Source: a virus. Taken from it: a stretch of DNA of 64,000 nucleotides. The stretch covers positions 1-64,000 of IMG/VR virus record IMGVR_UViG_3300017963_002783; one strand, given 5' to 3'. Made by a program: the position numbers and the translations under genes. The notes under the pieces were generated by a model. That model saw only the letters and a list, made by a program, of their open reading frames with translations, made no database searches and was not told where the DNA came from. Below are positions 31,854 through 63,819 of this stretch, one piece after another (the stretch's first letter is position 1; every line of letters begins with the position of its first letter).

Positions 31854-32786
31854 ATGCCTTACGTCAACCCCTATCAGGTTTTATCCCCGTATCTCCAGCC
31901 CTCCGTTAAGACGGCGACTGCCCTTCTTCCTACGTTCTTGCAGCACAAGCGATGGAAGGAGGAAACCCCCGGGCGGGAAGCTGCAACCAAATACACGCAG
32001 GAACGGGCAAAACAAATCGAGGAAACGCGGCAACGCTGGACGGACATTATGACAGGGGGATTGCCGGGATTTTCCAAACTCCTACCGGAAGGCGTGACTC
32101 CCGAAACCTATCTCAAAGCGAGACAGATAGGGGCTATCAGTCCTATGTCCATTACCCAGCCTTCTTATCAGTTAATAACAGCCCCTGGAGAGGGAGGGAA
32201 GCCCGTACAGCAATGGGTTGAGAAAGGCAAGGGGGGTCCTTTCCCCGCTTATCAGAAGCAAGCCTTACAGAGAAAAACTTACGATTGGTCAGACCCGCAG
32301 GGAAACAAGTGGGCCAGGGATTATGATTACGACTCTACAACGGGTAGTTGGGAATGGTCGGGGCCAGCCCGCATGACTCAGAGAGCCAAAACCCTTGAGG
32401 ATATTTCAGCAGAGGCAGCGGCAAGGGCCAAGGGGACGGAGACAGTCGAACAACTCAGCCCCTCCCAGATGATAAACCAGATGAAACTGGAGGCTATGCA
32501 GAGAGTCCAGGCGAATGTTGCTAACGAAAATGACCTTCTCATCCTTGGTTATCACAAAGACCCCGTGGCGGCATCGCTTATCGGGCAGCTTATGGACGGC
32601 ATATCCATGGGCCTAGTAAGCGTAGAGGAGGGCGGGAAACGTAGGCCGCCCAACCAGGACGAAATCATGGGCATGATCAGGGAACGCCTGGACGTTTACC
32701 AGAAGGCTATCAACGAGAAGTACCTCGGGCCACAGCAGGCCCCTGTCGATCAACCCAATTTGCAGGACCCATTAGGTATCCGATGA
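31854..32786 (+). CDS. Internal virion region hypothetical protein
   Basis: 310 residues, mostly helical: an amphipathic N-terminal helix (REAATKYTQERAKQIEETRQRW), a DWSDPQGNKWARDYDYD beta turn segment, and a C-terminal helical part (SPSQMINQMKLEAMQRVQANV). No known domain. It precedes the giant protein with a four-base stop/start overlap, so the two are coupled and may act together in ejection. Confidence 0.5.
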   Translation: MPYVNPYQVLSPYLQPSVKTATALLPTFLQHKRWKEETPGREAATKYTQERAKQIEETRQRWTDIMTGGLPGFSKLLPEGVTPETYLKARQIGAISPMSITQPSYQLITAPGEGGKPVQQWVEKGKGGPFPAYQKQALQRKTYDWSDPQGNKWARDYDYDSTTGSWEWSGPARMTQRAKTLEDISAEAAARAKGTETVEQLSPSQMINQMKLEAMQRVQANVANENDLLILGYHKDPVAASLIGQLMDGISMGLVSVEEGGKRRPPNQDEIMGMIRERLDVYQKAINEKYLGPQQAPVDQPNLQDPLGIR

Positions 32787-35700: not shown

Positions 35701-38593
35701 AGAATTTCGAAAAGGTAAAAAGAAGTTTATCGCTGATTTCTTAAAACCCCCCTCCAAGCCCTCTACTGAACCACAAAAGTTCGGGGAACCTGATAGAGCC
35801 ATAGGCCGTGCCTACATAAAAGACCGCTGGCGACCCATTGTAGGGCAAAGGGAAATCAAGAAGGGCAAGAACAAAGGGAAACTGGAGGTAAGACTTCCTG
35901 ACGGCAAAAAGGCCATAGTGGAAAAAGACGCTATCAGGGAAATGTGGAAGCCCGAAGAGACGGGCAAGAAATCCCTGAAACAGCTTTCCAAGAAGTACCT
36001 CGGCTCCGAGGAGGGCATGGTGGACCTCGGAGAAATCCTGGACGTTCTCAAGAAGGCCCAGATCAACCTACCCAAAGACGATATAGGGGTTCTTCAGCAA
36101 TTTCTCCGTATCCCCGATTGGCTCACCGAGTCCCATCCCAAGGAGTTGAAGTTCGTCCGCGAGAACCTGAAAAAGAGGGACTTGCACCGGAACCTGCTCA
36201 GGCACGACCTCATGGGAGCCGTGAAGCCCTTCCTGGACCTCAAGGGGAAGTCTTTCGAAAAGGTGGCCGAAGCTCTCATCAAAGGCGACCAGATAGGGGC
36301 CACCCTGCCGGATAAAGTCCTCAAGAAGAAGTTCACCCCGGAAGAGGCCAACGCCTACCGTGCCGTCAGGGAAGTCCTCAACTACATTTGGTTCGAAGAC
36401 CTGCCTCAGCTCATGAAGGACCTCGGGCACAAGGAATCCGAGATTCAGGAGAAAATGAAGCAGTATGGGAAGCTGGGGGCTTACTTTCCGAGACGAAGGA
36501 TAGGGCGGTACTTCATTAAGGCCACCCGAAAGGAAGTGACTGAAGACCCGGAAACCTTTGTTCTGTGGCGGGAGCATTTTGACGACATTATCCTGACAGC
36601 CACCAGGGGCAAGATAGGCATAAAGTCAGCCTTCAAAAAGAAAAAGCTCGAAGATATGTTCCCCGATGCCATTATAGAAGGTCCCAAGGAAGTTACCCGC
36701 TACCCGGAGAGTATGTACTTTGAAGTGTCCCCCGCCGTTACCCAGGAACTCCTCGACTATGCCATGAAGCACGTTGAAGGCACCAAGGCCGAGAAGAACG
36801 CCTTCAAGAAGGCCATGGAGCAAGCCGTAGCCGATGTGTTCAAGGTCAGGGGTTTTATGGAACACGCCAAGGGCAGGAAGGGCATCCCCGGCTATGAACT
36901 CGCTCCCAAATACGCCAAGGAAACCCTGATAAACTACATAAACGGCTACGCGGGATTCAAGAGCAAGATGCTTGCCGCAAGGGAGTTGTGGCACGAATGG
37001 CCTAAAGTGAAATGGGAAGGCAAGCCGGGGCTGAGAACGTGGGCGGACAACTACGTCAAGGACACTTACTCCAACATGGATCGCCTCGACCTTGCTGTTG
37101 ACAAGGCGCGGGGCATTTTCTTCTATCAGTTTCTCGGTGCGGTTATCAAGTCCGCCATGCTCAATGCTACGCAGAACTTCATCTCTGCCACACCGATGCT
37201 CAGTACGGAAACAGGCTGGGCGGGTACAAAGGTATCCGCAGAGATGGTCAAAACCATGGGCGACATTGTGCGCCAAACATGGACCAAGAAGCCCAAGACT
37301 ACGGGCATTGACTGGCCTATGAGCAAGCGGGAAACCGCCACGTCCAAGAGGCTTTCGCCCGAAGAACAAAGGGCCATCACCAGGGCAAGGCTGGACGGCA
37401 CGGTTGCCGACAAGCTCACCGAAGAACTCATGGGAATAGCTTTCGGCAAGTATGGTGGGTATTTTCGTAAACTCCAAAGCGGCATGAGGTTCATGTTCGG
37501 AAGCGTAGAGCGCATGATGAACCGGGAGCCTACTTTTATGGTGGCTTTCCGGGTGGCCAAAAAGAAGGGCATGGGCTTCGAAGAGGCGTACACTTTTGCC
37601 CAGCGCATGGTGGAAAAGAGCCATTACAACTACGGCAAGACGAACCTGCCTAAGCTTGTCAGGGGCGAAAACCTGAAAGCCTTGCGTCCTGCCTGGACGT
37701 TCAGGACGTACACCGCCAATCTGGTAGAGGAAATGGGCTACCTCTGGAACCTTGCCGAACGGGAGCAAATGAAGGCTGGGCAAAAGCCATCCATCCCGGT
37801 AGGTAAGGAGAAGTTTACCCGGAATGTCAAGGGCAAGATGGCTCTTGCCAGAATGTTCGCCGCCCTGCTTGCTTTTGGGGGACTGGCAGGAATTCCTTTA
37901 TTTAACGATCTGATGGATTTCATTGCGAAGCGCACGGGGGAGGATCCCCGGAGCAAGATTGCGGAGATTGCTGGCGATTGGGCTGACATGGTGTTCTACG
38001 GCGGCCCGGGACTCGTTGGGGTGGACCTGACAGGTTCCATATCCATAGAAGTTCCGAGGAGCGCAGCGGAGCTTATCGGCATCCCTTACGAGTACGCCAA
38101 GCGCACCAAGAATTTCATGGACGACATTTACGTTCAGGACTGGCAGAGAGCAGCCGAGGATTTTCCGCTTACGCCTCAGTTTGCCAAGTACCCTATCCAG
38201 GCTTATCGCTATGCCACTGAAGGTTTCAAAACCCGAACGGGTGTTGACATTGTAGACGATGATTTTCAACCCATCAAGCTCACCCAGTGGGAAGCCATGA
38301 GAAAAGCGGCAGGCTTTCAACCCACCCGCATATCGGAGCACTGGCGCAAGGAGAGAACTAGGGCCATCACAAAGAAGTACTGGGAGGACCGCAAGACACG
38401 GCTCCTGACTGCTCACAGGAACGCCCTGAGCGCGGGCGACTACCAGAAGCTCGCAGAGATAGGCGGCAAGATTCAGGATTTGAACTCGCAGCTTCCCCCC
38501 GAGGTGGCTCCTATCAATATCAGAACCATCAAAACGGGCATGAAGCCCATTAAGAGCAAGCGGGAAGCCATTGGCCGCAAGAGGATAAAGTGA
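32783..38593 (+). CDS. Giant internal virion / ejection protein
   Basis: 1936 residues, the largest gene here. The start (IRQKYPQYSDMPDGDLAQRLHSKFYADIPFEEF) is the short helical module common at the N-terminus of podovirus internal proteins. A hydrophobic stretch follows (SWLTNLYGLPASGLAALAGLPF). Residues about 250-1000 are Lys/Glu/Pro-rich and partly AT-rich, with likely coiled coils and disorder. The last 900 residues are well conserved in style, with long helices and two hydrophobic segments (FFYQFLGAVIKSAMLNATQNF, MALARMFAALLAFGGLAGIPLF). It is probably ejected with the DNA. Enzyme motifs, such as a lytic transglycosylase Glu, are not evident to me. Confidence 0.65.
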   Translation: MNLAEIRQKYPQYSDMPDGDLAQRLHSKFYADIPFEEFSKKIGYEPVKEATQPSWVGEQAGGALETAQNIGRVYPALEAGASWLTNLYGLPASGLAALAGLPFGKEQEWAEKTREALIYQPQTERGQQLMGRTMLPFEKLQEAAEYAGGKTLEKTGSPALATGVHTAIEAAPVLVPFGPKFVKGIRNKIVNSTTWRKASIPERNLIIQDLDDVLNNPQSIKKGVTEADIVRKYGGKYFEQALERRIKGESRHTFADIIEEVEPTGPPPVPGMWQGEPRAEMMPSKEFATTPVRGPIPQPRKPMAGPGGGWVEGAGEIKKPYPGQKAIPVPIPKLGPPPEAPVPSGPPIPMTQGIGSQVPFPEGFTQAGAPPPEEIAKALETERETAAAEEFEKAKVKEKPEKFSKQWLMRTFKGDVYNQTGDFLGSVYLDGEEAHLLKIDDGKVVEKLGVYKPTDFEKAGKLQLSARQSVQEWKLKQPPRIEKGEVRKAAAFSPDTLLKAATEIDPELVHVGVKELRKKFPDVSKDEFDKAVLNLRDKGEVWLQRSAASPKVAEKMGQEVVVEGEDTYSSLSKRKPTPREAKGKEPWEKAEIRAEQIDDAEKIAKALIKDKISRNKAFDRYVAQQLGRPDLTEGEFLEIYDRYKAEYPDLKPVKEEKAHILAPDTVEGVEGNILWEDKNGVVYESSKLGSKHHGDIPEGVRLKIEDVARRGFISEGKETWLEKPIPLPKKKPVPLKKSEKAKPKRVTARDYLEEKVVAGGIETTRGQLIKELQAQGANRQQIDMYLMGLETGKEAREKAKPEKAKGKKAEKLPEGAELVARHMKKPEYKGDSEIVTEYYVTKAPSGKYEMYRRRYKDQEKVSEDLLTQEWTKEKAATSSETVFLNAEKFNIGKELQKQKDAEEEFNKQEYKLRSELQDLIDKGTEEYHKELKKARIYGKAEKGEAPQEKIDAIAAKLKPKWEPQIEVKRAELKEFRKGKKKFIADFLKPPSKPSTEPQKFGEPDRAIGRAYIKDRWRPIVGQREIKKGKNKGKLEVRLPDGKKAIVEKDAIREMWKPEETGKKSLKQLSKKYLGSEEGMVDLGEILDVLKKAQINLPKDDIGVLQQFLRIPDWLTESHPKELKFVRENLKKRDLHRNLLRHDLMGAVKPFLDLKGKSFEKVAEALIKGDQIGATLPDKVLKKKFTPEEANAYRAVREVLNYIWFEDLPQLMKDLGHKESEIQEKMKQYGKLGAYFPRRRIGRYFIKATRKEVTEDPETFVLWREHFDDIILTATRGKIGIKSAFKKKKLEDMFPDAIIEGPKEVTRYPESMYFEVSPAVTQELLDYAMKHVEGTKAEKNAFKKAMEQAVADVFKVRGFMEHAKGRKGIPGYELAPKYAKETLINYINGYAGFKSKMLAARELWHEWPKVKWEGKPGLRTWADNYVKDTYSNMDRLDLAVDKARGIFFYQFLGAVIKSAMLNATQNFISATPMLSTETGWAGTKVSAEMVKTMGDIVRQTWTKKPKTTGIDWPMSKRETATSKRLSPEEQRAITRARLDGTVADKLTEELMGIAFGKYGGYFRKLQSGMRFMFGSVERMMNREPTFMVAFRVAKKKGMGFEEAYTFAQRMVEKSHYNYGKTNLPKLVRGENLKALRPAWTFRTYTANLVEEMGYLWNLAEREQMKAGQKPSIPVGKEKFTRNVKGKMALARMFAALLAFGGLAGIPLFNDLMDFIAKRTGEDPRSKIAEIAGDWADMVFYGGPGLVGVDLTGSISIEVPRSAAELIGIPYEYAKRTKNFMDDIYVQDWQRAAEDFPLTPQFAKYPIQAYRYATEGFKTRTGVDIVDDDFQPIKLTQWEAMRKAAGFQPTRISEHWRKERTRAITKKYWEDRKTRLLTAHRNALSAGDYQKLAEIGGKIQDLNSQLPPEVAPINIRTIKTGMKPIKSKREAIGRKRIK

Positions 38594-38596
38594 TAA

Positions 38597-39271
38597 ATGC
38601 CCGTCACCCAATCTGCAAAACTGACCGCCAGAGGACAGGACTGGCTCGAGGACAAGCCCGCCCTGCTCAGGCAGCTCAACTATATCATAAAGGATATCTA
38701 CTGGTGGCTTGACTACATCCGGGGCATTGAGGGCCACACCTTTGCCCCGTCCAGCATGACCGTCCCGGACCACGACCACACCGCGGCAGATGAGGGTGGG
38801 GACTACCCATGGGCCGATTTAGTAGTGGCGGACGTTACTTATCTTCAAACGCTTGTCGCTGACATCCTGGTCAACAACCTCGTTGACAAAAGTTCCGATG
38901 AGACTATCACCGGGACATGGATATTCCAGAAATACGCCTACGTTACGAAAAGCGGCGCGGGTCCTTTCAATCTCACCTCGGACGACTACGGCAAGAAAAT
39001 CTTTATAGACAACGGCGTGAACAACGTCGTTGTGAACCTCCCGGACATTGACGCTTCAAGCATCGGCTACTGGCTGAGTATCGTCCGGATGGGAACTGGT
39101 ACGCTCAGTATTCAAGCCAAGGCGGGGGATACCATCGGGCCTTCCTCTGCGGGAGGTTATGTTCTATCCATGGAGACGCGAACGTACCCGGAACTCGGCC
39201 TGGAAGTGGAAAGCGCGACTCACTGGTCCCCCGGCGCCATGGGGAGTTACGGAATTTGGAGAGTGTTTTGA
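38597..39271 (+). CDS. Putative tail fibre/adapter protein
   Basis: 224 residues. An N-terminal helix (LLRQLNYIIKDIYWWLDYIRG) leads to a His/Asp segment (VPDHDHTAADEGGDYPWADL) of the type seen near metal-binding fibre joints, then beta-rich repeats with NVVVNLPDID and GYWLSIVRMGTGTLSIQAKAGD, typical of fibre heads that end in a conserved SIQ/ITI pattern. First gene of the receptor-binding region. Confidence 0.6.
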   Translation: MPVTQSAKLTARGQDWLEDKPALLRQLNYIIKDIYWWLDYIRGIEGHTFAPSSMTVPDHDHTAADEGGDYPWADLVVADVTYLQTLVADILVNNLVDKSSDETITGTWIFQKYAYVTKSGAGPFNLTSDDYGKKIFIDNGVNNVVVNLPDIDASSIGYWLSIVRMGTGTLSIQAKAGDTIGPSSAGGYVLSMETRTYPELGLEVESATHWSPGAMGSYGIWRVF

Positions 39272-39272
39272 T

Positions 39273-39833
39273 ATGGCTGGGCTGGATCCCATTATTGTAA
39301 TAGGTATCCCCCGCAGCGGCACGACTAATGTGGCGCGGTTGCTCCATAATCATTTCGGGGTGTTTATGGGTCACAAATTCTGGAACCCGGGATTCGCAGG
39401 GCCTGACGGCACTTATGAGGATTTGCGTCTTATGGAGATGAATCAATTATTTGATTTGGGGCTTATTAAGATCGAGCCCTGGAAGCGGCGATTTAGACGA
39501 TTTGTGAAATCCAGGCAGAAACTACAAAAGCCTTGGGGATTTAAAGACCCGCGTTTAATTCATGTTTTGCCTGTCGCCCTGTCATTTTTTGAACACCCAC
39601 TCATTATCCGCTGCGAAAGGCATAAGGAATACGTGATGCACAGCCAGACGACAAAGCTGGGCTGGAAACGGGAAGATGCCGAAGCGTTTTACGACAATGC
39701 CCAAAAAATTATGGACCACGTTCTAGGGGGTCAGAACTATCTACTAGTGCATTATCCCGAAGGCGTAAGGCACAAAGACGAAAAAATCATTAGTGCTTTG
39801 GAGCAAATAGAATTGAGTTATGGCCTTAATTAA
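39273..39833 (+). CDS. PAPS-dependent sulfotransferase-like protein
   Basis: 186 residues. The 5'-phosphosulfate loop GIPRSGTTN is at 11-19 and the 3'-phosphate-binding region IIRCERHKEYVMHSQTTK near 120 has the expected Arg and Ser. Such enzymes move sulfate from PAPS to sugar hydroxyls, tyrosine or small molecules. It is shorter than most (250-300), so it may be a minimal version. It sits between two fibre genes and overlaps the serine-tract fibre gene by 14 bases, an arrangement that suggests the fibre or its glycan as the substrate. Confidence 0.75.
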   Translation: MAGLDPIIVIGIPRSGTTNVARLLHNHFGVFMGHKFWNPGFAGPDGTYEDLRLMEMNQLFDLGLIKIEPWKRRFRRFVKSRQKLQKPWGFKDPRLIHVLPVALSFFEHPLIIRCERHKEYVMHSQTTKLGWKREDAEAFYDNAQKIMDHVLGGQNYLLVHYPEGVRHKDEKIISALEQIELSYGLN

Positions 39834-41928
39834 TCCATACAAACGACATCTTAAATGGGAATCGACAGGCCGGACATACGAAAAACTGGACGCTGAGGGT
39901 CAACCGACAGGCGAAAAGATTTGGGCCGGTCAAATCGGTGAACAACAGGTCCAGGACGACCAGGGAAATTGGCAACCGTACATTCATGAAAACGATGAAC
40001 TGAGGTTTTCCCATCACGACAGCCGCATTAAGTTTGAATCCGGGCAGCAGGTACTCAAGAAAGTAGCGGATAAGATTTGCGAATCGGTCAAGCTGTTTGT
40101 CGAGAAGGAAACTGCTCCCGGTGTGTGGGAGACACAACCTCATGGTCTGCCTACCCGAAACATTCTCCACAACAAGCGATTCAAGAATAAGGAGATTGTC
40201 GATTATGAGGGGTCGGCTATCGGCTGGCTGGAATTTCCCGACGCCCCGTATGACCTCCAGATCGGGATGCAGGTTGGCCGCCGCAAACATAGCGTGTTCG
40301 GCTTTCGGTTTCGCGCCCCCATTTCCGGCAGGGTGCGGTTTCAGATTGTCAAGGATGGCATTCCGAAAGTTGCAGGAGGCGCTAAACTTATCAAGCGCAC
40401 GATAAATGATGAAGAGCGCATACTCGGCGTCCAGTACAAGGATTGGTATTGGAAATGGACGTATGACGAGGCGGCGTATCATTCGATAGATGTGCAAAAT
40501 TCGAGCGCATATCCCGGCACGTGGAAAGCCGTCATTACTATTGGGCCTTTCGATTATGAGGAAAATACGTGGATTGAGGTCGTACCTGCCACTTGGGGGC
40601 CGACAGATACGAGTGACGATTGTTACGAAGATGCCAGAACAACTTTCAGAGAGGACATTGGTGCCTACAACGACTTAGTACAGGGATACAATTACGCCTA
40701 CATGGAATCAGGTTGGATCTGGAGTAATGTACAGGCATCAGGTACGGCGGGAGATGGGTGCTATATCGAAATATATGTTAGAACGTTAGGTTCCGGCTCT
40801 AACGGCAACGAGTATGGTCGCCTGTATGCTGTTGATGCACGGGATGTGACGGCATGGAGCCAGGACTATAGGCCATACACTCATACCACTCGTCATGCCA
40901 CCTATGTAGCGTGGAATGTAGGCGCAACTGGCTTACAGAAAAACTCCAGCATAAAAACGCTTATCCAAGAGCGATTTGACGACGACCATGTGGCAGGGGA
41001 TGAGATTGGCCTTGTATGGTTGGAAACTAGTCATTCCGGCTTTAAGGACAGGATTTATTATAACTCGGAAGATACTGGCAGTGGCGATCCCCCAGCCCTG
41101 TATATAGTTTATACGGCGGGAAGTTCCTCATCCTCAAGTTCATTTTCCTCTAGTTCTAGCTCGTCAAGTCCGTCAAGCTCATCCAGTTCCAGTTCGCTAA
41201 GTTCCTCCTCGTCAAGCAGTAGCCTATCTTCGTCAAGCAGTTCAAGCTCACCGTCCAGTTCCAGCTCTTCGAGTTCGCCATCCTCCAGTTCATCCTCTTC
41301 GTCACTAAGCTCAAGCTCGTCAAGTTCTTCTCCCTCGTCCAGCAGTTCATCATCGTCGCCCTCATCCAGCTCCAGTTCCTCCAGCCCTTCCAGTTCGTCA
41401 AGCTCCAGCTCACCGTCAAGCTCCAGCTCATCCCCGTCTTCGTCATCCAGCAGCCCATCTTCGAGCAGTTCCTCGTCAAGCCCGTCCAGCTCGTCGTCCA
41501 GCAGTTCACTATCATCTTCTTCCTCAAGTTCTTCGCCCTCGAGTTCCAGTTCAAGCCTTTCCTCATCTTCATCTTCAAGTTCTCCATCATCCTCCAGTTC
41601 CAGCTCGTCATTATCTAGCTCATCTTCCTCTTCATCATTCAGCAGTTCCAGCTCGTCCTTATCGTCCAGCTCTTCTTCTTCGTCTCCATCAAGCTCCAGC
41701 TCTTCAAGCTCCGAATCCTTATCAAGCAGTTCGAGCAGTTCCAGTCTATCAAGCAGCAGCTCCTCTTCTTCGCCATCCTCATCATCCAGTTCCAGTTCGA
41801 ACCCATCAAGCAGCAGTTCCTCTTCTTCTGAGTCCAGTTCATCATCCTCATCTTCGCCAAGCTCCAGTTCGTCCAGTTCATCTATGAGTGCGCTTGAAAT
41901 ACTTTATTTCGGGGTGGCTAACCCATGA
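39820..41928 (+). CDS. Fibre protein with giant serine-repeat stalk
   Basis: 702 residues in three parts. Residues 1-434: a beta-rich globular region (IGWLEFPDAPYDLQIGM, FGFRFRAPISGRVRFQIV, later EIGLVWLETSHSGFKDRIYY) that looks like a fibre or carbohydrate-binding module. Residues 435-688: a serine tract, mostly eight Ser followed by one Pro, Leu or Phe. Residues 689-702: a short MSALEILYFGVANP tail. There is no signal peptide. Serine-rich repeat stalks are known from bacterial adhesins, where the serines carry O-glycans. The neighbours (sulfotransferase, methyltransferases, three glycosyltransferases) make glycosylation of this stalk plausible but unproven. Confidence 0.7.
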   Translation: MALINPYKRHLKWESTGRTYEKLDAEGQPTGEKIWAGQIGEQQVQDDQGNWQPYIHENDELRFSHHDSRIKFESGQQVLKKVADKICESVKLFVEKETAPGVWETQPHGLPTRNILHNKRFKNKEIVDYEGSAIGWLEFPDAPYDLQIGMQVGRRKHSVFGFRFRAPISGRVRFQIVKDGIPKVAGGAKLIKRTINDEERILGVQYKDWYWKWTYDEAAYHSIDVQNSSAYPGTWKAVITIGPFDYEENTWIEVVPATWGPTDTSDDCYEDARTTFREDIGAYNDLVQGYNYAYMESGWIWSNVQASGTAGDGCYIEIYVRTLGSGSNGNEYGRLYAVDARDVTAWSQDYRPYTHTTRHATYVAWNVGATGLQKNSSIKTLIQERFDDDHVAGDEIGLVWLETSHSGFKDRIYYNSEDTGSGDPPALYIVYTAGSSSSSSSFSSSSSSSSPSSSSSSSSLSSSSSSSSLSSSSSSSSPSSSSSSSSPSSSSSSSSLSSSSSSSSPSSSSSSSSPSSSSSSSSPSSSSSSSSPSSSSSSPSSSSSSPSSSSSSSSPSSSSSSSSLSSSSSSSSPSSSSSSLSSSSSSSSPSSSSSSSSLSSSSSSSSFSSSSSSLSSSSSSSSPSSSSSSSSESLSSSSSSSSLSSSSSSSSPSSSSSSSSNPSSSSSSSSESSSSSSSSPSSSSSSSSMSALEILYFGVANP
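41122..41883 (+). repeat. Serine nonapeptide repeat tract (254 codons)
   Basis: Imperfect in-frame repeat: S8-X, where X is Pro, Leu or Phe, with some S6-X units and rare Glu, Asn or Met near the end. All six serine codons are mixed (AGC, AGT, TCA, TCC, TCG, TCT), so the DNA is not a simple microsatellite. This argues that the protein pattern, rather than recent slippage, is conserved. Confidence 0.92.
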
Positions 41929-42296
41929 TGAGGTATGCCTTGAGAATCCTAAGTTTGCTGACTATCGTGTTGTTTGCTGTGTTTCTTACGATGTCCGAGG
42001 CGGATGTTTTTCTTGCGGCTGACCCGGAAGAAAGCGACGAACCGGAAGTCTACATCATTTATTACAACGGCACCACGGAACAATATGAGACAGAGGCAGA
42101 CTACACCATAAAGCACAATATTACCGAGTGGCCGGAAGACACCTACGAAGTCAAGTTAAGGTACGGCGCCACATCTACGGGCCCGTGGAGCGAATACTCA
42201 AGTACGAAATATCTCATCATCAGTTATCAGTCGGGGGCAGACCAGGCAGAAAGTTTTTTTCACCGATTTCAAACATGGAGAATTAAAGACCCATGA
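41925..42296 (+). CDS. Exported/anchored protein of fibre region
   Basis: 123 residues. N-terminal hydrophobic segment (LRILSLLTIVLFAVFLTMSEADVFLAA) works as signal peptide or anchor. The mature part is a small beta domain with aromatic strands (EVYIIYYNGTTEQYETEADY, VKLRYGATSTGPWSEYS) reminiscent of fibronectin-type or carbohydrate-binding modules. It overlaps the serine-tract gene by four bases. Function unknown; exposure on the cell envelope is likely. Confidence 0.55.
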   Translation: MMRYALRILSLLTIVLFAVFLTMSEADVFLAADPEESDEPEVYIIYYNGTTEQYETEADYTIKHNITEWPEDTYEVKLRYGATSTGPWSEYSSTKYLIISYQSGADQAESFFHRFQTWRIKDP

Positions 42297-42766
42297 CCAT
42301 CCATAAACTATACCTCGGAAGCGTGGGACCCTTCCTGTTTAACGATGAGGACGACATAGACGACCCTGAGAATGATTTCCAGAACCAGAAACAGCGGGCT
42401 ATTGTGACCAACTTTCCGCTCGGTGCGTGGACACAGCTTCCCATTGAGGACAGGGTACAGGGCGGTCAACTCACCGATGCCGATTGGTTGAAACTCATCT
42501 GTGTGGACAGCCAGCAGAGCGAAACGCTTATCCTGCCCACCATTACGGCGCAGCACCGGGGGAAATGGATAGGGGTAGCCCGGACGACTTCGTCAGAACT
42601 GATTGTGCAGGCACCCGTAGGGACTAAAATTGCCAGTTCCCCTGTGGGAGGCAAACTGATCTGCGCCAATGACAGTAGGCAAGGGGCATGGCTTGTTTTT
42701 TTCGCCCTCACCTTAAGTCAATACAGTCCGGGCTGGGGCTATGGCAAATGGCAGGTAGCGGCATGA
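42293..42766 (+). CDS. Fibre-region beta protein
   Basis: 157 residues, no signal peptide. Acidic beginning (FLFNDEDDIDDPENDFQNQ) then beta strands with SETLILPTITAQHRGKWIGVAR and ELIVQAPVGTKIASSPVGGKLICAND, a pattern like the fibre protein at 38597. It ends GWGYGKWQVAA, as fibre head proteins often do with Gly/Trp. Start and stop overlap both neighbours by four bases. Confidence 0.55.
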   Translation: MTIHKLYLGSVGPFLFNDEDDIDDPENDFQNQKQRAIVTNFPLGAWTQLPIEDRVQGGQLTDADWLKLICVDSQQSETLILPTITAQHRGKWIGVARTTSSELIVQAPVGTKIASSPVGGKLICANDSRQGAWLVFFALTLSQYSPGWGYGKWQVAA

Positions 42767-43290
42767 ATTACGATCTTGACTATTACGAGAACCTTCTCAG
42801 GCAGTACAGTGCCACGGGGGAGCAGATTGCCAGGCGCAGATGGCAATGGATTACGGACACCATCGACCCTAAGATAGTTCTTGACTACGGTTCCGGTGTG
42901 GGATGGTTCAGGGCATGGAGGCCCAAGGGTGTCGAGGTTCACAGCTATGATATAGGCCCCTTCCCGCAGACGGGCGTTGAGCTTCGCATGTATGACGTGG
43001 TGTGCTTCTGGGACGTGCTGGAACATATTGACAACTTTTCTCAGGTAGAACCCATTCTGGCTTTAAGCCATAATGTGGCCGGGACTGTCCCAATTAAGCC
43101 TGACAAGACGAGGTACGCAACCTGGAAGCACTTTAAAATAGGAGAACACCTTCATTTCTGGAATAAAGAAACCCTGAACGGTTTCTTTGAGCGATACGGC
43201 TTTCAGTTAAGCAAGCATAGCAGGGAAATCGAATGTCCCCCGAGAAAGGATATCCTATCATTCTTTTACCAAAAGGAGATAACAAGATGA
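42763..43290 (+). CDS. Class I SAM methyltransferase
   Basis: 175 residues. Motif I VLDYGSGVGWFRAWRP (near 37-52), then VEVHSYDIGPFPQTGVELRMYDVVCFWDVLEHIDN, the usual post-II pattern of Methyltransf_23-type enzymes, and a HFKIGEHLHFWNKETLNGFF block. Probably methylates a sugar or glycan terminus. ATGA overlap with the previous stop. Confidence 0.8.
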   Translation: MNYDLDYYENLLRQYSATGEQIARRRWQWITDTIDPKIVLDYGSGVGWFRAWRPKGVEVHSYDIGPFPQTGVELRMYDVVCFWDVLEHIDNFSQVEPILALSHNVAGTVPIKPDKTRYATWKHFKIGEHLHFWNKETLNGFFERYGFQLSKHSREIECPPRKDILSFFYQKEITR

Positions 43291-43526
43291 CTAAGGTATT
43301 AAGTGTTCTGGATTTTGACGTAAGAAAAAAGGTTCTCGAAGCCCTTGCTGCGGGTAAATACATAGTGACCGTAAGCACGGTGAACGAAAAGACAGGTAAG
43401 CTCGACCATTATGCGGTCTTCAAGGAGTTCCCAACGGACGATATTTTTCCAGCTTTAGAAGAATGCGTTAAGTTAGTGGCAAATCAATTAGGTAAAATAG
43501 ATGAGGAAGGTCATATTACGCAATGA
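43287..43526 (+). CDS. Small hypothetical protein
   Basis: 79 residues, helix-beta-beta-helix look (LDFDVRKKVLEALAAGKYIVTVSTV ... LEECVKLVANQLGKID). AAAAGGAG ten bases before the ATG at 43287. Sits between a methyltransferase and a glycosyltransferase and overlaps both. Function not recognised. Confidence 0.5.
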   Translation: MTKVLSVLDFDVRKKVLEALAAGKYIVTVSTVNEKTGKLDHYAVFKEFPTDDIFPALEECVKLVANQLGKIDEEGHITQ

Positions 43527-44409
43527 ATTGAGTCCCGGTGATATCCTGACCATGACGAGGGTAGTGGCTGACCTGGCCATGGCTTTCCCTGAGTGGCTTA
43601 TAGATGTCCGGTCTCCCTGCCCCGAAATTTGGGAAAACAATCCCTACATCGTGCCATTAGAGCAAAAAGAAGAGGGTGTCGAATCCTTCACGGTTCATTA
43701 TAACGGCATCCACGAATCGGGCTGGAAAGGTCAGCACTGGACCGATGCTTTCCATGACGATGTGGAACAACAGTTAGGGGTTTCGTTCTCGAAGACAGGT
43801 ATTAAGCCGGAGCTTTATTTATCGGATGAAGAGAAGGGCTGGATTAATCAGGTGGAGGTGGATTGCGGCTGGCCCGGTCCCTTCTGGCTCCTTAATGCCG
43901 GTCACAAGCCTGATAACACGCTGAAGCAATACCATCGCTGGCAAGAGGTTGTGGATCTCTTCAATGACTATTTCAACGGGGCGGTCAGGCTGGCCCAGGT
44001 GGGCCACAAAAGCCACAAGCATCCTCAATTAAAGGATGTCTATAACCTTGTCGGCAAGACGGACCTCCGGCAGCTAATCAGATTGGGATGGTGGGCGCAC
44101 GGCACAATCGGCCCATTGTCTTTTCAGTTTGTCATGAGTGCAGCTTTCGAGCAACCCCATGTAGTCGTAGCGGCAGGCAAGGAAGGGGTGCGGTGGCATA
44201 TCTATCCCCATGGCAGATACCTCTATACTAATGGTGCCCTGGACTGTTGTAAATGGGACGGGTGCTGGAGGGGCGGCACGCAGGGTGAATGTGTAGATTT
44301 GGTTTATGGTGTTCCCAGATGCTTTAGGTTGATTAAGCCGTACATGATCGTAGATGCTGTTAAAATGTATTATGAGGGAGGCAGACTTGGACTTTCAAGG
44401 GGTAAGTAA
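43501..44409 (+). CDS. Family 9-type glycosyltransferase
   Basis: 302 residues. GT9 enzymes (heptosyltransferases and relatives) have a GT-B fold and add sugars to lipopolysaccharide cores. Fits: the opening VILRNELSPGDILTMTRVVADLAMAFPEW, the linker ELYLSDEEKGWINQ, then FWLLNAGHKPDNTLKQYHRWQEVVDLF and DLRQLIRLGWWAHGTIGPLSFQFVMSAA, which is the GT9 donor-site block (usually GPxSGxxHLAAA; here SFQFVMSAA). Family call is by pattern. Acceptor could be LPS or a virion glycan. Confidence 0.72.
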   Translation: MRKVILRNELSPGDILTMTRVVADLAMAFPEWLIDVRSPCPEIWENNPYIVPLEQKEEGVESFTVHYNGIHESGWKGQHWTDAFHDDVEQQLGVSFSKTGIKPELYLSDEEKGWINQVEVDCGWPGPFWLLNAGHKPDNTLKQYHRWQEVVDLFNDYFNGAVRLAQVGHKSHKHPQLKDVYNLVGKTDLRQLIRLGWWAHGTIGPLSFQFVMSAAFEQPHVVVAAGKEGVRWHIYPHGRYLYTNGALDCCKWDGCWRGGTQGECVDLVYGVPRCFRLIKPYMIVDAVKMYYEGGRLGLSRGK

Positions 44410-44986
44410 GGCTATATGGCACGACAAGGGCAAAGGACTCAGGGAAAAAGAAGCCATCTGGCTAATCAATCTGTGTTGTGATTTGAGACCCGACATTGTT
44501 CTTGATATCGGCACGGGATGGGGAGTTACGGGCAGAATCTTTTCCCTGACTGCCAACAAGGTTTACAGTATTGACAAGGGTGCCTGCGGTTATGCCCGTA
44601 AAGCCATTACGGATTATGGACGATTAGACAAAGTAGAATTTATTCAATCGCCTTCGATTGATACTCTCTTGCCAATCTCTTTCCATTCGGCAGACCTGGC
44701 GTTCATAGACGCCGGCCACCCAACCCTTTACGTTATAGCCGATTTTATGAAATATTCCAGGTTTATCAAGGACGGCGGTATTATTTGTTTTCATGACTGT
44801 GACCGTAAAGATGTCGTGGAGGCTCTGGCACTCATAGAAAAGCAGAACCCGAAACTCCATGAGGGGTACGCGCTTAGACAGTTTCATGCTGTAGACATTA
44901 CAAGGGCCTTCTATTGGGAAAAGGAAAACCCATTTAAGGCGGTAGACATAAACCGTGTCGATCCGACAAAGGCGAGCGCCCAATGA
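44387..44986 (+). CDS. Class I SAM O-methyltransferase (TTG start)
   Basis: 199 residues from TTG at 44387, chosen because GGGAGG stands five bases before it while the in-frame upstream ATGs have no ribosome-binding site. Motif I IVLDIGTGWGVTGRIF, then KVYSIDKGACGYARKAI, and DLAFIDAGHPTLYVIADFMKYSRFIKDGGIICFHDC, the Methyltransf_24/CmcI-like pattern of sugar O-methyltransferases. It overlaps the GT9 gene by 23 bases. Confidence 0.78.
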   Translation: MDFQGVSKAIWHDKGKGLREKEAIWLINLCCDLRPDIVLDIGTGWGVTGRIFSLTANKVYSIDKGACGYARKAITDYGRLDKVEFIQSPSIDTLLPISFHSADLAFIDAGHPTLYVIADFMKYSRFIKDGGIICFHDCDRKDVVEALALIEKQNPKLHEGYALRQFHAVDITRAFYWEKENPFKAVDINRVDPTKASAQ

Positions 44987-45744
44987 AAGTGTACCTTCCC
45001 TGGTTGGGAGAGTTTGGCAACGAGCTTCTAAGATGGGTCCCGGCTGTAAGAAATTGCCAGGAGCCAAGAATTGCTTGTTATGAGGAGGGGAAAGACTGCC
45101 TTTACCCGTGTGCTGATGGCAGACATATTGTTCCGAGGGTTAATGAACAAGACAGGGTATGTAGCGGAGCCCTAACTCAAAAAAGCGTTTGGGATGAGGT
45201 AAAGAAAACATTAGGACCAGACCACGAATATATAACCCCCTCCACACTAATGCCACTTTACCCGGAATATCAGCATTTCGAACCATTGACAAAAGACTTC
45301 GGTTTTTCGTGCGATATAGCCGTATTCCCCCGTTGGCGCCACAACACCAAAAGACTGAACTGGGAGAATTGGCCCAAGTTTGTAAGCCTTCTGCAAGCTA
45401 CGGGCTATCGAGTTTTCGCTTGTGGCCATCCTGACAGCTCCTTTAATGTGGATTGCCCTGCCGCTTGGGATTATGACAACCCTTTGGAAGCATCCATTTG
45501 GGCAATTAAGCACAGCAAGATTCGCATAGGAATGATAACAGCTTTGACCGTGATGAGTCTTTATTGCGGTAAGGAACCCTGGGTGCTCGTCAATCAAAGA
45601 GGTATGAAATGTAACACGGGACGTGACGCCCCTAACTTTGCTTACCTCTGGTTTGCAGACTGGCAGGGGGTGGGCTGGCGCGTTTATCCCTACCTGAACC
45701 AATACATCGAAATGATGCCCATTATTGAAAAAAGGCTCTCATGA
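44983..45744 (+). CDS. Putative glycosyltransferase (GT-B type)
   Basis: 253 residues. The opening YLPWLGEFGNELLRWVPAVR resembles GT-B starts that place a Gly loop on the acceptor, and the second half (FPRWRHNTKRLNWENWPKFVSLL, RVFACGHPDSS, ASIWAIKHSKIRIGMITALTVMSLYCGKEPWVL) follows the GT9 or fucosyltransferase-like donor domain. No confident family. It is coupled by ATGA overlaps to enzymes on both sides. Confidence 0.6.
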   Translation: MKVYLPWLGEFGNELLRWVPAVRNCQEPRIACYEEGKDCLYPCADGRHIVPRVNEQDRVCSGALTQKSVWDEVKKTLGPDHEYITPSTLMPLYPEYQHFEPLTKDFGFSCDIAVFPRWRHNTKRLNWENWPKFVSLLQATGYRVFACGHPDSSFNVDCPAAWDYDNPLEASIWAIKHSKIRIGMITALTVMSLYCGKEPWVLVNQRGMKCNTGRDAPNFAYLWFADWQGVGWRVYPYLNQYIEMMPIIEKRLS

Positions 45745-46580
45745 AAAGATATCAGGTAATTGTTCCCGCCTCAGAAGTTTTCATTCCGGGTTTGACGGTC
45801 TTCCTGAAAACTTTCTATCATTATCATCAGGACAAAGATATAGGCGTTACGCTTCTCAACTACGATCTGCCCGAAGATTACATTGCCCGCTGGCCGTTCG
45901 AGCAGATTATTCAGCTCGATACCGGCAGAAGTCCAGGACTTGTCTGTAAACTCGAAAGCTACCGGATTGCCGCAGAACAGGACAGGATAACCATGCTTGC
46001 CGATGCGGACAGTTTCTTTATGGCATCCATGTATCCCTACTTCCGGCTTGCGGAAATGGGCTACATTGTCGGGTCAGCCAATGGGCAGAACATTGTTTTC
46101 AAGCAGGACTACGAGGACTTGACGGGCATTCAGGGCATAGCGGGGAAGTTTGCCTATCGCACCATCGCGGCACCCCTTATTCTGGATCCACGAAAGCACG
46201 GTCAGGTGTTTACGGATGCCGTCAATCAATGGTGGAAAATAGGGGAGAATCATTCAACATCCATCTGGATGCTTATGAATGCTTTCATGTGTATGCACAA
46301 CAAGCAGGAGGATATTGTTCTCCTGCCCGCCCAACAATTAACCAACCTGCACCAGAAGATGCTCAAGCCCGGAACAAGAGTGAGAATGCACGAAGGGAAA
46401 CTTGTAACCGAGGACGGGCTTCAGGTGCTTATGTGTCATGATAAATGGTGGCGGCAAAACTTCCTGGACGGCCTTATGAAGATGGGACAAAAATTTTGCA
46501 AAGGGGATTCCCATTGCTTAAATCAATGGAAAGGCAGCCGTGATTTGCTGAAAGCGGAGTTTGATAAATGGGCACAGTGA
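45741..46580 (+). CDS. GT-A glycosyltransferase (GT8-like)
   Basis: 279 residues. An Rossmann-like start (YQVIVPASEVFIPGLTVFLKTFYHYHQDKDIGVTLLNY), a DADSF metal-binding DxD motif near residue 89 and a C-terminal basic region. GT8-type enzymes add glucose or galactose with a DxD and a divalent metal. The last glycosyltransferase of the region, overlapping the first tailspike gene by 13 bases. Confidence 0.65.
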   Translation: MKRYQVIVPASEVFIPGLTVFLKTFYHYHQDKDIGVTLLNYDLPEDYIARWPFEQIIQLDTGRSPGLVCKLESYRIAAEQDRITMLADADSFFMASMYPYFRLAEMGYIVGSANGQNIVFKQDYEDLTGIQGIAGKFAYRTIAAPLILDPRKHGQVFTDAVNQWWKIGENHSTSIWMLMNAFMCMHNKQEDIVLLPAQQLTNLHQKMLKPGTRVRMHEGKLVTEDGLQVLMCHDKWWRQNFLDGLMKMGQKFCKGDSHCLNQWKGSRDLLKAEFDKWAQ

Positions 46581-47686
46581 CAAAAGAGCCTGCCGGAAAG
46601 CAGGATATTCGATCCTGGTACGACAACGGCGACGGGGATGCCAAGACTTTTAGCCGTCAAACTTCTGAAGGATATAACCTGACCCTCCGGAAGCTGGACT
46701 GGGTAGGCATAGACGCTATGAGCGCCTTTGGCGGAAACGTACTCCAGGACTCCTCCGTTTTGGAAGACCTCATGACGGATGTGGGGGCATCCGACAGGGT
46801 GGCGGTATTTTTGGCTCCCGGTAAATGGCAAATTACTAAAGACCAGACCATTACGGGCAACCTTGTCCTGTTCATGCCCCCCGGCGCGTATTTCGATACG
46901 GACATTACAATCCGCAGTTCGGCTTACAAATGGACGCTCTCAGGTTCCGGCACGAATGAGTATTACCTGGAAGCCTCGGCGGGGGGCGACCCGGGCATTA
47001 ATCAGCCGTCCTCTATTATAGAGAACGGCACGGCCATGACTGCCGGGGCTGTGGGAGGGCTTGCGGCAGGGGAGTGGGCCTGGGACGACAATGACACCCT
47101 TGGGTACGATACGGTCTACGTTAGGTTGTCGGACAATGTGGATCCGGACACCAAGGCGGCAAACTATGTCCTGGCAGGCTACACCCTCACAGTCAACGCC
47201 TGGATAGAGGCGGGACCGTATCAGATCGTGACGGGCTACGGGACGTTCACGTATACCGGGTACGACAACTCGGACAACTCGACGAGCGGAGGCGGGGAGG
47301 ACAATCTCGCTTCGAGTACAATTCCCGCTTACGGTTTGGGAACCAAGCGGGGCATTCTGGTCAAGGCGGCGGGTACCAAAACGGGCCTGAACGGAAACAA
47401 GACTCTCAAGTTCTATTTCGGCACTAAGGAAATCACGGTCAACCTGCCGGCGAACAACGAGCACGATTGGCAGCTCACGGTGGAAATCTGGAACACGGCT
47501 ACCAACGCCCAGCGCATAGCGTGGGAGTACATCGAAAGTCAGGCCGGGGCCGTCATGGAACACCGTGCCGATTACGATACCGCAGCGATTGATACGACAT
47601 CTGCCGTCACGGTGAAAATGACAGGCACTTGTGCCAATGCGAGCGACACGATAACCCAAACTATCTGGAGATGGAACCCGATATGA
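46568..47686 (+). CDS. Tailspike-like protein A
   Basis: 372 residues. N-terminal module (residues about 5-60: EPAGKQDIRSWYD, KTFSRQTSEGYNLTLRKLDWVGID) shared with tailspike B at 47683. A LVLFMPPGAYFDTDITI segment looks like the start of a beta-helix. The later module (YKWTLSGSGTNEYYLEASAGGDPG, NDTLGYDTVYVRLSDN) also recurs in B. No enzyme motif is clear. The protein has no signal peptide, unlike B. It likely binds or trims a surface polysaccharide. Confidence 0.62.
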   Translation: MGTVTKEPAGKQDIRSWYDNGDGDAKTFSRQTSEGYNLTLRKLDWVGIDAMSAFGGNVLQDSSVLEDLMTDVGASDRVAVFLAPGKWQITKDQTITGNLVLFMPPGAYFDTDITIRSSAYKWTLSGSGTNEYYLEASAGGDPGINQPSSIIENGTAMTAGAVGGLAAGEWAWDDNDTLGYDTVYVRLSDNVDPDTKAANYVLAGYTLTVNAWIEAGPYQIVTGYGTFTYTGYDNSDNSTSGGGEDNLASSTIPAYGLGTKRGILVKAAGTKTGLNGNKTLKFYFGTKEITVNLPANNEHDWQLTVEIWNTATNAQRIAWEYIESQAGAVMEHRADYDTAAIDTTSAVTVKMTGTCANASDTITQTIWRWNPI

Positions 47687-49701
47687 AAAAGCGAATAATG
47701 TTAGGGATATTCGGGGCCGTCCTTCTGGCGGCCTTTTTCGTGGTGCATTTTGGTATTGATACCATCATAGCGGGCACGGTTACGAAAGGGATTGTCGGCA
47801 AGCAGGACATCTATTTGGAGTATCAGGTGGATTCCACCAAGACGTTCTCGCGGCAGACTGCTACGGGCTACAACCTCACCCTTAACAAGATTGACTGGGT
47901 AGGCATAGATCTTTGCCAGGTGTACGGCGGGGGGGTCAACCGGACTCGCTCCGTGCTGGTCCAGGCGGCAAGCGATACGGAAAGCGATAAGGTCCAATGG
48001 TGGATACAGCCCCATGAGGATGGCTGGGCCATCACGGACGACCTCGACCTGTCCGGATACGAGGATGTCACCATAGTTTTGCCCGAAGGGGCGTACTTCA
48101 ATATTTCCAACGGCAAGACCTTAAAGCTGTACTCCCCGGCCAACCTGGTGTGTGGACCCCGGCAGCAGATTGTCAGCGGACTTGGTACGCTGGATTTTGA
48201 AAAGGACGGCGATTATCACGTCGCATGGAGGGGCGCGACAGGGGACGGTAGCACGAACGACACTTCGGCCATCCAGACGGCAATAAGCGAAGCTGGGACG
48301 GGTAGGCTGATATTTCAAAGTTGCACCTACAAGGTAGTCTCCACGGCTGGCACTCCCGCCCTGTCTATCGGGGCCTCCCTGGACGTTGAGATGCCCCGGG
48401 ATGCCATTATCGCGGATTACGGTGTGGGTACGACTGTTAAAATCGACACGGGAGCTGTCGAAGCAAAGGCCCAAGTGAATCTCGGTGTTATCCAGAGTGC
48501 AGATACTACGGACGGAACGGTCGGAGTTGACCGCCCAACAACTATGGTGCAGTTCTCAGACGCGAGATACGTTAGCTGCCGTATAGAAAGCATAATAGGC
48601 AAGGCGACGAATGGTCTCTTGTTTTACGCCGGGGCCGGGGAAATAAATTATTGGAACCGGATTGACGGCCCTTACATACCTGCCAATCTGCATGGAGTGG
48701 ATTATATCGTCCCGACAAACGGCGTGAAGTTCAACACGGCGGCTACGGGCTACAACAACGATAATGTCATAGAGAATGCCATTACTTACAGATGCACGAA
48801 CCATTACGTGGTTTACGGAAATAGCGGAACGAATGTCCTTCGGGAATGTGCCTGGAACGCTGGCGATAATGGGGTCATTGTAGGTGACGGCACCTATAAC
48901 GCCGAATATAACGCCTTCATGAATGTCCGGGGCGAAAACAACACAAGCTATTCCTACACTTTCGGCACTACGGGCAATTACAACACGGTCTTTGCAAAAC
49001 AATCCGGGGCGACCGCCTCGGTGATTTCCGACTCCGGGGCGGGCAATGAGGTTAAAACCGCCACCGGCACGGTGGGCAGAAGCCTCGCGGCTTATAAAAC
49101 GTTCAACGGAACCATGAACGGCGCGGGCATAAATATCACTGATGGAGTCACGTATCAATGGACGGCTTCCGGGTCCGGAACGGGGGAATACTATTGCGAA
49201 GCCCTCGGAGGAGGCAACCCGGGCCTGGCCGATCCCGACCATGTGGTCATGAACGGTACGGTCAGAAGCCAGGCTACGCTTGGGAGTTTGACAGCCGGAA
49301 CGTGGAACTATGGCGACAATGATGTGCTTGGCTGGGACACCATCTATGTACGCCTTGACGACGATGCGGATCCTGACAGTAAAGCCGCAGGGTGGCTTCG
49401 GACGGGTGAAAAGGGGTTAATCGCCAGACTTAGCCAGGGGGCGAATCGGCATATAAGAGTTCTGTCCGGTGGCGCCACGGACGAGGACGGTTCCCCAGAC
49501 ACTTTGTATCATATTATTCTTTATAATGTGTCGGATGAAACCGTGGAATATTCCATCAGTAATACGGCAACCAGTAAAGGATATCCCCTTAAGCAAGCCA
49601 ATTATGCCGTTGTGAAGGTTTACGAAATACGCCTTGTATGCTGCCTAGTGGCTGGCGGGGATATGATGGGCTGGATGACCATTAGCATGGACGGGGAGTA
49701 A
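47683..49701 (+). CDS. Tailspike-like protein B with N-terminal membrane/signal segment
   Basis: 672 residues from the ATG at 47683 (ATGA overlap). It begins with a signal-anchor (MKKRIMLGIFGAVLLAAFFV through IIAG), which virion tailspikes normally lack. Then come the shared module (KGIVGKQDIYLEYQVDSTKT, TGYNLTLNKIDWVGIDLC), a pectate-lyase-like opening (GATGDGSTNDTSAIQTAISEAGTGRLIFQSCTYKV), a long right-handed beta-helix region, and the second shared module (TASGSGTGEYYCEALGGGNPG, NDVLGWDTIYVRLDDDADPD). It may be exported and act on the host surface, or be a spike whose leader has another use. Confidence 0.65.
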   Translation: MKKRIMLGIFGAVLLAAFFVVHFGIDTIIAGTVTKGIVGKQDIYLEYQVDSTKTFSRQTATGYNLTLNKIDWVGIDLCQVYGGGVNRTRSVLVQAASDTESDKVQWWIQPHEDGWAITDDLDLSGYEDVTIVLPEGAYFNISNGKTLKLYSPANLVCGPRQQIVSGLGTLDFEKDGDYHVAWRGATGDGSTNDTSAIQTAISEAGTGRLIFQSCTYKVVSTAGTPALSIGASLDVEMPRDAIIADYGVGTTVKIDTGAVEAKAQVNLGVIQSADTTDGTVGVDRPTTMVQFSDARYVSCRIESIIGKATNGLLFYAGAGEINYWNRIDGPYIPANLHGVDYIVPTNGVKFNTAATGYNNDNVIENAITYRCTNHYVVYGNSGTNVLRECAWNAGDNGVIVGDGTYNAEYNAFMNVRGENNTSYSYTFGTTGNYNTVFAKQSGATASVISDSGAGNEVKTATGTVGRSLAAYKTFNGTMNGAGINITDGVTYQWTASGSGTGEYYCEALGGGNPGLADPDHVVMNGTVRSQATLGSLTAGTWNYGDNDVLGWDTIYVRLDDDADPDSKAAGWLRTGEKGLIARLSQGANRHIRVLSGGATDEDGSPDTLYHIILYNVSDETVEYSISNTATSKGYPLKQANYAVVKVYEIRLVCCLVAGGDMMGWMTISMDGE

Positions 49702-63743: not shown

Positions 63744-63819
63744 GCGGTGATGATGCAAGGGTAGCATATCCTTTGTTCCAAAAGGAATACGGCGGTTCGA
63801 CTCCGACCTCACCGCTCCA
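63744..63819 (+). tRNA. tRNA-Gly (TCC) with irregular loops
   Basis: 76 bases including an encoded CCA. Acceptor GCGGTGA/TCACCGC is perfect, discriminator T73 is typical of glycine, D-arm ATGC/GCAT with GGG in the loop, T-loop TTCGACT. The anticodon stem is TCCTT/AAGGA with an eight-base loop TGTTCCAA (or six pairs with a six-base loop), where TCC is the probable anticodon. The T-stem has a bulged A. It may be a relaxed or frame-altering tRNA. Confidence 0.72.

What the first reader, a model, noticed from the sequence alone, without database searches (positions are those of the whole stretch)
39273..46580. Serine-tract fibre packed among sulfo-, glyco- and methyltransferases
The 702-residue fibre-like protein at 39820 carries 254 residues of an S8-X repeat. 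Seen: a PAPS-type sulfotransferase overlaps it upstream; methyltransferases (42763, 44387) and three glycosyltransferases (43501, 44983, 45741) follow in the same overlapping run. Known: serine-rich repeat stalks of bacterial adhesins are O-glycosylated by neighbouring glycosyltransferases. Inference: the phage encodes its own decoration line for a fibre stalk (glycan, sulfate, methyl), which would be new for a virion. The mixed serine codons argue that the protein pattern is under selection.
Basis: partly seen in the sequence, partly recalled or inferred. Interest (0 to 1): 0.82.

Follow-up and report, generated by a model that had tools for sequence, protein, structure and literature searches.

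The report
Phage serine-stalk fibre with sugar-adding enzymes
This uncultured phage carries a tail-type protein with a 254-residue, almost pure serine tract, next to genes for enzymes that probably attach and modify sugars on it; the same pairing recurs in unrelated phages that share little else, so it looks like a phage-made glycoprotein coat.

Summary
Residues 435-688 of the 702-aa protein at 39820-41928 form a mixed-codon S8-X tract (224 Ser), inside a run of overlapping genes. Pfam confirms one sulfotransferase and two methyltransferases (MT). Structure models support two of the three glycosyltransferases (GT): 43501 is a GT9-type GT-B fold, resembling WaaF and the serine O-heptosyltransferase TibC; 45741 is a GT8-like GT-A fold. 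44983 stays unresolved.

The decisive evidence is comparative. The fibre head has no detectable relative, but the enzymes do. In IMG/VR, every cluster with an MT42763-GT43501 gene pair (7 of 7 at 85% GT identity) has a serine-tract protein just upstream. Where the GT43501 relative lies in other gene contexts, 0 of 10 clusters do. The nearest usable relative (major capsid protein 80% identical) has, at the same locus, an unrelated head, a (SASE)n tract and a GT2-MT fusion. The tract is the shared feature, so it is the likely substrate.

Most likely: phage-encoded O-glycosylation of a serine brush, with methylated and sometimes sulfated glycans. No chemistry is shown. Virion glycosylation by phages is already known; this architecture appears not to be. 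The main rival is an unmodified polyserine linker beside an unrelated enzyme island.

The parts
38597..39271 (+). 224-aa tail-fibre-like protein upstream of the cassette; its N-terminal ~110 aa is conserved in the relative G004 and marks the syntenic site
   Evidence: 53% identity over 111 aa to L135:10450-11091
39273..39833 (+). sulfotransferase (in-frame upstream ATG at 39159 also possible)
   Evidence: Pfam Sulfotransfer_3, E 1.4e-9, 39 bits against cut-off 27
39820..41928 (+). serine-tract fibre-like protein, 702 aa; head of 434 aa without detectable relatives
   Evidence: no relatives in IMG/VR, cultured phages or MCP relatives
41122..41883 (+). S8-X tract, 254 aa, 224 Ser, all six Ser codons mixed
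41925..42296 (+). small protein with a hydrophobic N-terminus, unknown
   Evidence: ORF and sequence; no significant family
42293..42766 (+). 157-aa protein, unknown, perhaps a small fibre or tip protein
   Evidence: ORF; no family
42763..43290 (+). methyltransferase MT42763, core of the conserved cassette
   Evidence: Pfam Methyltransf_23 5.5e-13; homologues at 51-60% identity beside GT43501 homologues
43233..43526 (+). small gene conserved in the cassette (97-aa ORF; homologues ~70-90 aa), unknown
   Evidence: 15 homologues in the fetched loci, mostly between MT and GT
43501..44409 (+). GT43501: GT9-like glycosyltransferase with a conserved Cys cluster
   Evidence: AlphaFold pLDDT 88; Foldseek WaaF 5.7e-11, TibC from 2e-8; Pfam GT9 in 8 of 18 family members; Cys 249/250/255/264/274 conserved
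44387..44986 (+). second methyltransferase (upstream ATG at 44354)
   Evidence: Pfam Methyltransf_24 1.1e-8
44983..45744 (+). possible GT-B glycosyltransferase, unresolved
   Evidence: no Pfam or PHROGs family; weak colinear hhalign to the 43501 profile, E 0.057; homologue in the L247 cassette
45741..46580 (+). GT45741: GT8-like GT-A glycosyltransferase
   Evidence: AlphaFold pLDDT 86; Foldseek LgtC 9.8e-8, GlyE 4.7e-7; DAD motif invariant

Best explanation
39820-41928 encodes a tail-associated protein whose near-C-terminal serine tract is a stalk or brush. In the host cytoplasm, before assembly, the neighbouring cassette decorates the tract. A GT9-type enzyme (43501) adds the first or an early sugar, plausibly O-linked to serine as TibC does with heptose. 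The GT8-like enzyme (45741), and perhaps 44983, extend it. The methyltransferases (42763, 44387) cap or vary the sugars, and in this phage a sulfotransferase adds charge. The result would be a hydrated, glycan-coated fibre that keeps the stalk extended and protease-resistant, or alters what the virion sticks to. Shown: the tract, the enzyme families, and the recurrent tract-enzyme pairing. Inferred: that the tract is the substrate, the linkage, the sugars, the order of steps, presence in the virion, and the benefit.
For: Pairing: 17 of 54 deduplicated GT43501-family loci have a mixed-codon Ser tract on the same strand within 2.5 kb upstream, against 2.6% expected from 674 kb of the same contigs (binomial p 2e-14). 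Cassettes with an adjacent MT homologue of at least 50% identity: 7 of 7 clusters have a tract just upstream, against 0 of 10 clusters with only a more distant MT homologue (p 5e-5). Heads differ while tract and enzymes persist. The relative G004 has an unrelated (SASE)n protein plus a GT2-MT fusion and an MT at the same site. MT and GT9 are fused in L294, which fits successive steps on one glycan. GT43501 resembles TibC, which modifies serines but not threonines (PMC4358343). Tract neighbours lacking GT43501 are also enriched in GT, MT and sulfotransferase genes, about 8 of 91 against 0 of 91.
Against: No biochemical data and no cultured phage with the cassette. 61 of 67 tract loci found by pattern lack the GT43501 family within the fetched DNA. 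GT43501 relatives also occur in contexts without an adjacent tract, at least one of them a sugar-biosynthesis-like cluster (L254). The Cys region of the model has low confidence. The control segments do not specifically match tail-fibre genes.
Confidence: 0.68

Rival explanations
1. The tract is an unmodified, disordered polyserine linker or spacer, as in the polyserine-linked carbohydrases of Saccharophagus. The enzyme island is unrelated cargo that happens to sit in the tail region.
For: Polyserine linkers separating domains are known in bacteria (PMC2386152). Some viral tracts do lie between folded domains (L052, L028, L056). Most tract loci found by pattern lack the GT43501 family.
Against: It does not predict that MT-GT9 cassettes have a tract gene just upstream in 7 of 7 clusters, the sharp distance pattern, or many tract proteins that end at the tract.
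Confidence: 0.18
2. The enzymes modify the host surface (LPS, capsule) during infection or lysogeny, and the tract is incidental.
For: GT9 relatives such as WaaF and WaaC act on LPS core. The genome encodes an integrase-like protein, so lysogenic conversion is conceivable. Some GT43501 relatives lie in sugar-biosynthesis-like clusters (L254).
Against: None of the confirmed enzymes is of the membrane flippase or bactoprenol-GT type expected of gtr-style serotype conversion (general knowledge; by inspection of the ORFs). The genes overlap the fibre gene. The cassette tracks serine tracts across otherwise unrelated phages.
Confidence: 0.12

Closest known systems
TibC/AAH bacterial autotransporter heptosyltransferases (BAHT)
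   Same: GT-B/GT9-like fold, conserved Cys cluster in the C-terminal half, transfer to serines of a repetitive adhesin encoded nearby (PMC4358343)
   Different: No N-terminal beta-barrel; other Cys spacing (CC-x4-C-x8-C-x9-C here, C-x2-C-x15-C-x11-C in TibC); acceptor is a phage serine tract, not a beta-helix autotransporter; partner methyltransferase in the cassette
Serine-rich repeat glycoproteins (SRRP) of Gram-positive bacteria and their Gtf clusters
   Same: Long Ser-rich stalk encoded next to a set of glycosyltransferases; the relative G004 has SASE/SESA repeats; GlyE is a structural neighbour of 45741 (PMC6973325 as the SRRP review found)
   Different: No Pfam hit to the GT1-type family of GtfA/GtfB and no accessory Sec genes seen; virus, not cell-surface adhesin; methyl- and sulfotransferases present
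Phage virion glycosylation in mycobacteriophages (Che8 and relatives)
   Same: Phage-encoded glycosyltransferases decorating virion proteins (Freeman et al. 2023, cited in PMC12619734 and PMC11256854)
   Different: There capsid and tail tube C-termini; here a long serine tract of a fibre-like protein with a GT9/MT cassette
Polyserine linkers of marine carbohydrases
   Same: Long serine runs next to folded domains (PMC2386152)
   Different: They separate domains within secreted enzymes; here the tract is near-terminal and paired with GT/MT genes

Membership tests
GT9 (heptosyltransferase) family, for 43501 | GT-B fold closest to GT9 enzymes | tested here: met
   Best Foldseek matches are WaaF, a GT9 of Veillonella, TibC and WaaC
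GT9 (heptosyltransferase) family, for 43501 | Match to the Pfam GT9 profile | tested here: inconclusive
   The window protein itself has no hit; 8 of 18 family members do, best 1.1e-7; a fused relative scores 27.2 bits against cut-off 22
BAHT (TibC/AAH) | N-terminal beta-barrel domain | tested here: not met
   The 302-aa protein starts at the first strand of the N-lobe; TibC has residues 1-97 as barrel
BAHT (TibC/AAH) | Iron finger of four cysteines | tested here: inconclusive
   Five (nearly) invariant Cys at a comparable place but other spacing; metal not testable here; model confidence low in that stretch
BAHT (TibC/AAH) | ADP-heptose donor and Ser acceptor | not testable with these tools
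   needs enzymology
SRRP glycosylation loci | Ser-rich repeat stalk next to glycosyltransferase genes | tested here: met
SRRP glycosylation loci | GtfA/GtfB pair and accessory Sec system | tested here: not met
   No such family among the proteins scanned from the run and its flanks; not every ORF of the genome was scanned
Phage-encoded virion glycosylation | Glycan demonstrated on a virion protein | not testable with these tools
   needs mass spectrometry

The most novel reading that the evidence does not exclude
Uncultured phages of many lineages carry a modular serine-brush glycosylation system: swappable lectin-like heads with serine tracts, plus a conserved MT-GT9 core whose GT transfers sugar directly to serine (a phage counterpart of TibC), extended by GT8-like enzymes and capped by methyl and sometimes sulfate, giving virions a mucin-like coat.
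Probability: 0.45. Interest if true: 0.87.

Novelty: new variant of a known kind. Interest (0 to 1): 0.76.

Why it matters
If true, tailed phages build dense O-glycan brushes on fibre stalks with their own enzyme sets, as mucosal bacteria do for adhesins. That would give a function to the serine tracts that recur in environmental viral contigs and are easily dismissed as low complexity. It would predict modified virion surfaces (adhesion to particles or mucus, protease resistance, receptor mimicry), and it provides a set of small, apparently soluble protein glycosyltransferases paired with an unusually simple acceptor. The core claim can be tested by co-expressing two or three genes in laboratory E. 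coli.

Tried and rejected
Fibre-head homology searches in IMG/VR, cultured phages and MCP-related contigs found nothing. Searches for GT43501, GT45741 and the sulfotransferase in 50,697 cultured phage records found nothing; MT42763 gave one weak hit, Enterobacter phage Mulvp2, 25% identity. A portal-based control scan returned only one near-identical contig and could not serve as a control; I used 34 segments of the GT-bearing contigs instead. A first Fisher test compared 20-kb control segments with 2.5-kb windows (p 0.19); that comparison is mismatched and was replaced by a density-based binomial and cluster-level counts. DNA slippage as the origin of the present tract is rejected by codon mixing. 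Many pattern hits are microsatellites and were filtered out by codon diversity. BAHT membership is rejected because the beta-barrel is missing. A search with the GT2-MT fusion of G004 for more relatives found only itself.

Full report
What is there. The window is the first 64 kb of a 69,470-bp virus record. It encodes a P22-like portal, a terminase, a major head protein and an integrase-like protein, so it is a tailed phage with a P22-like packaging module, possibly temperate. Between 38.6 and 46.6 kb lies a run of abutting or overlapping genes. The 702-aa product of 39820-41928 has a 434-aa head, a 254-aa tract with 224 serines (24 exact S8 blocks) and a 14-aa end. All six serine codons are mixed; units match each other in codons no more than independent choice predicts (0.172 against 0.174), and the longest exact DNA repeat is 18 bp.

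Enzymes. The sulfotransferase (39273-39833) and two methyltransferases (42763, 44354/44387) pass Pfam cut-offs. The three proposed glycosyltransferases have no meaningful Pfam match. An alignment of 18 relatives of 43501 gave a confident model (pLDDT 88). Its best PDB matches are heptosyltransferase WaaF (5.7e-11), a GT9 enzyme (3e-10) and TibC (from 2e-8); eight of the 18 relatives hit Pfam GT9. TibC O-heptosylates serines of autotransporter adhesins and carries an iron finger of four cysteines (PMC4358343). The 43501 family has five (nearly) invariant cysteines (C249, C250, C255, C264, C274) at a comparable position, but with other spacing, and it has no N-terminal barrel. 45741 models as a GT-A fold close to LgtC and GlyE. 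44983 remains unresolved.

Comparison with a close relative. The record G004 (IMGVR_UViG_3300028840_002850) has a major capsid protein 80% identical and is broadly colinear up to the gene at 38597. Just after that gene it has an unrelated head followed by about 500 residues of SASE/SESA repeats, then a GT2-methyltransferase fusion and another methyltransferase. Head, repeat and enzymes have all been exchanged, but the combination of Ser-rich repeat + GT + MT is kept.

Comparison through the enzyme. A single-protein search with 43501 found 16 viral loci, two pairs of them near-duplicates; in most with enough upstream sequence a Ser-rich tract gene lies upstream, usually followed by MT42763 and GT43501 homologues. 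One (L247) keeps the order MT-small-GT9-MT-GTx-GT8. A profile search gave 80 loci. After deduplication at 85% GT identity, 54 loci had at least 1.5 kb upstream; 17 of these have a mixed-codon Ser tract on the same strand within 2.5 kb upstream. The density of such tracts in 674 kb taken elsewhere from the same contigs predicts 2.6% (binomial p 2e-14). That control density is, if anything, inflated, because some GT contigs without an adjacent tract carry tracts elsewhere (4 of 8 contigs). Distances are sharply structured: 17 of 18 upstream same-strand tracts lie 0.6-2.2 kb away, and the nine downstream same-strand tracts all lie 5.0-6.7 kb away, as if a ~5-kb enzyme island sits between two tract genes.

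Subfamily test. Where an MT homologue of at least 50% identity sits next to the GT43501 homologue and upstream sequence exists, all 7 independent clusters have a serine tract just upstream. Where only a more distant MT homologue is present, 0 of 10 clusters do (Fisher p 5e-5). The grouping was made after seeing the data, so the p-value is descriptive. Two contigs that failed the strict tract filter (L284, L285) belong to the L290 cluster; L285 encodes a related head with a short Ser tail. In L294 the MT and GT9 domains are one polypeptide.

Reverse test. Of 67 mixed-codon tract loci found by pattern, 6 carry the GT43501 family. Among 91 neighbours of tracts lacking that family, Pfam finds about 8 GT, MT or sulfotransferase proteins (GT1, GT2, GT9, GT11, Methyltransf_24, Sulfotransfer_3), against 0 of 91 control proteins (Fisher p 0.003). 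The count of 8 treats overlapping families as one protein and is approximate; the control proteins come from other genome regions, not from tail regions only. Sulfotransferases occur in 4 of 44 GT43501 contigs, so sulfate would be an optional addition.

Interpretation. The shared element across these loci is the serine tract plus the MT-GT9 core; heads vary. The simplest reading is that the tract is the acceptor and that the phage makes a glycosylated, methylated and, here, perhaps sulfated serine brush. The polyserine-linker reading explains the tract but not the pairing; the host-surface reading explains GT9 but not the pairing. None of the chemistry has been shown, no cultured phage in the collection carries the GTs, and virion incorporation is inferred from the tail-module position.

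Novelty. Phage virion glycosylation exists (Freeman et al. 2023, cited in PMC12619734 and PMC11256854), and Ser-rich glycoprotein stalks and serine heptosylation exist in bacteria. I found no description of a phage serine-tract plus GT9/MT cassette in the open-access library; papers outside that library were not seen. I rate it a new variant of a known kind.

Noticed in passing
L135:11451-13394 (G004): A related phage has a 647-aa protein with about 500 residues of SASE/SESA repeats, the repeat type of Gram-positive SRRP adhesins, followed by a GT2-methyltransferase fusion.
   Followed up: partly
L261:9013-10980 and L262:9031-10941: In Caballeronia and Nitrospira genome contigs a GT43501 relative lies next to a large protein with a Ser-rich stretch on the opposite strand, beside long unannotated proteins; the enzyme-tract pairing may exist in cells too.
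   Followed up: partly
window 41122-41883: Serine codon use in the tract is flatter than in the other genes (TCA 0.21 against 0.06, AGT 0.15 against 0.10) and switches between TCN and AGY more than expected, as if DNA repeats were avoided.
   Followed up: partly
L268, L269, L271, L290 and others: Many viral tract proteins end at the tract (..SSSTST..SASA), so the tract is often a C-terminal brush rather than a linker.
   Followed up: partly
window 62406-63167: Phage-encoded tRNA-His guanylyltransferase homologue (phrog_4717, 8.3e-82), followed by an odd tRNA-like hit at 63744-63819 without a clear anticodon.
   Followed up: no
window 32783-38593: 1936-aa polyvalent-type protein with a DarB-like antirestriction match in its C-terminal part (phrog_10089, 8.2e-20).
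   Followed up: no
window 47674-49701: Tail-spike-like protein with a sub-threshold endosialidase N-terminal motif; its N-terminal part has a relative at another position in G004 (L125:13473-15776, 39% over 223 aa).
   Followed up: no
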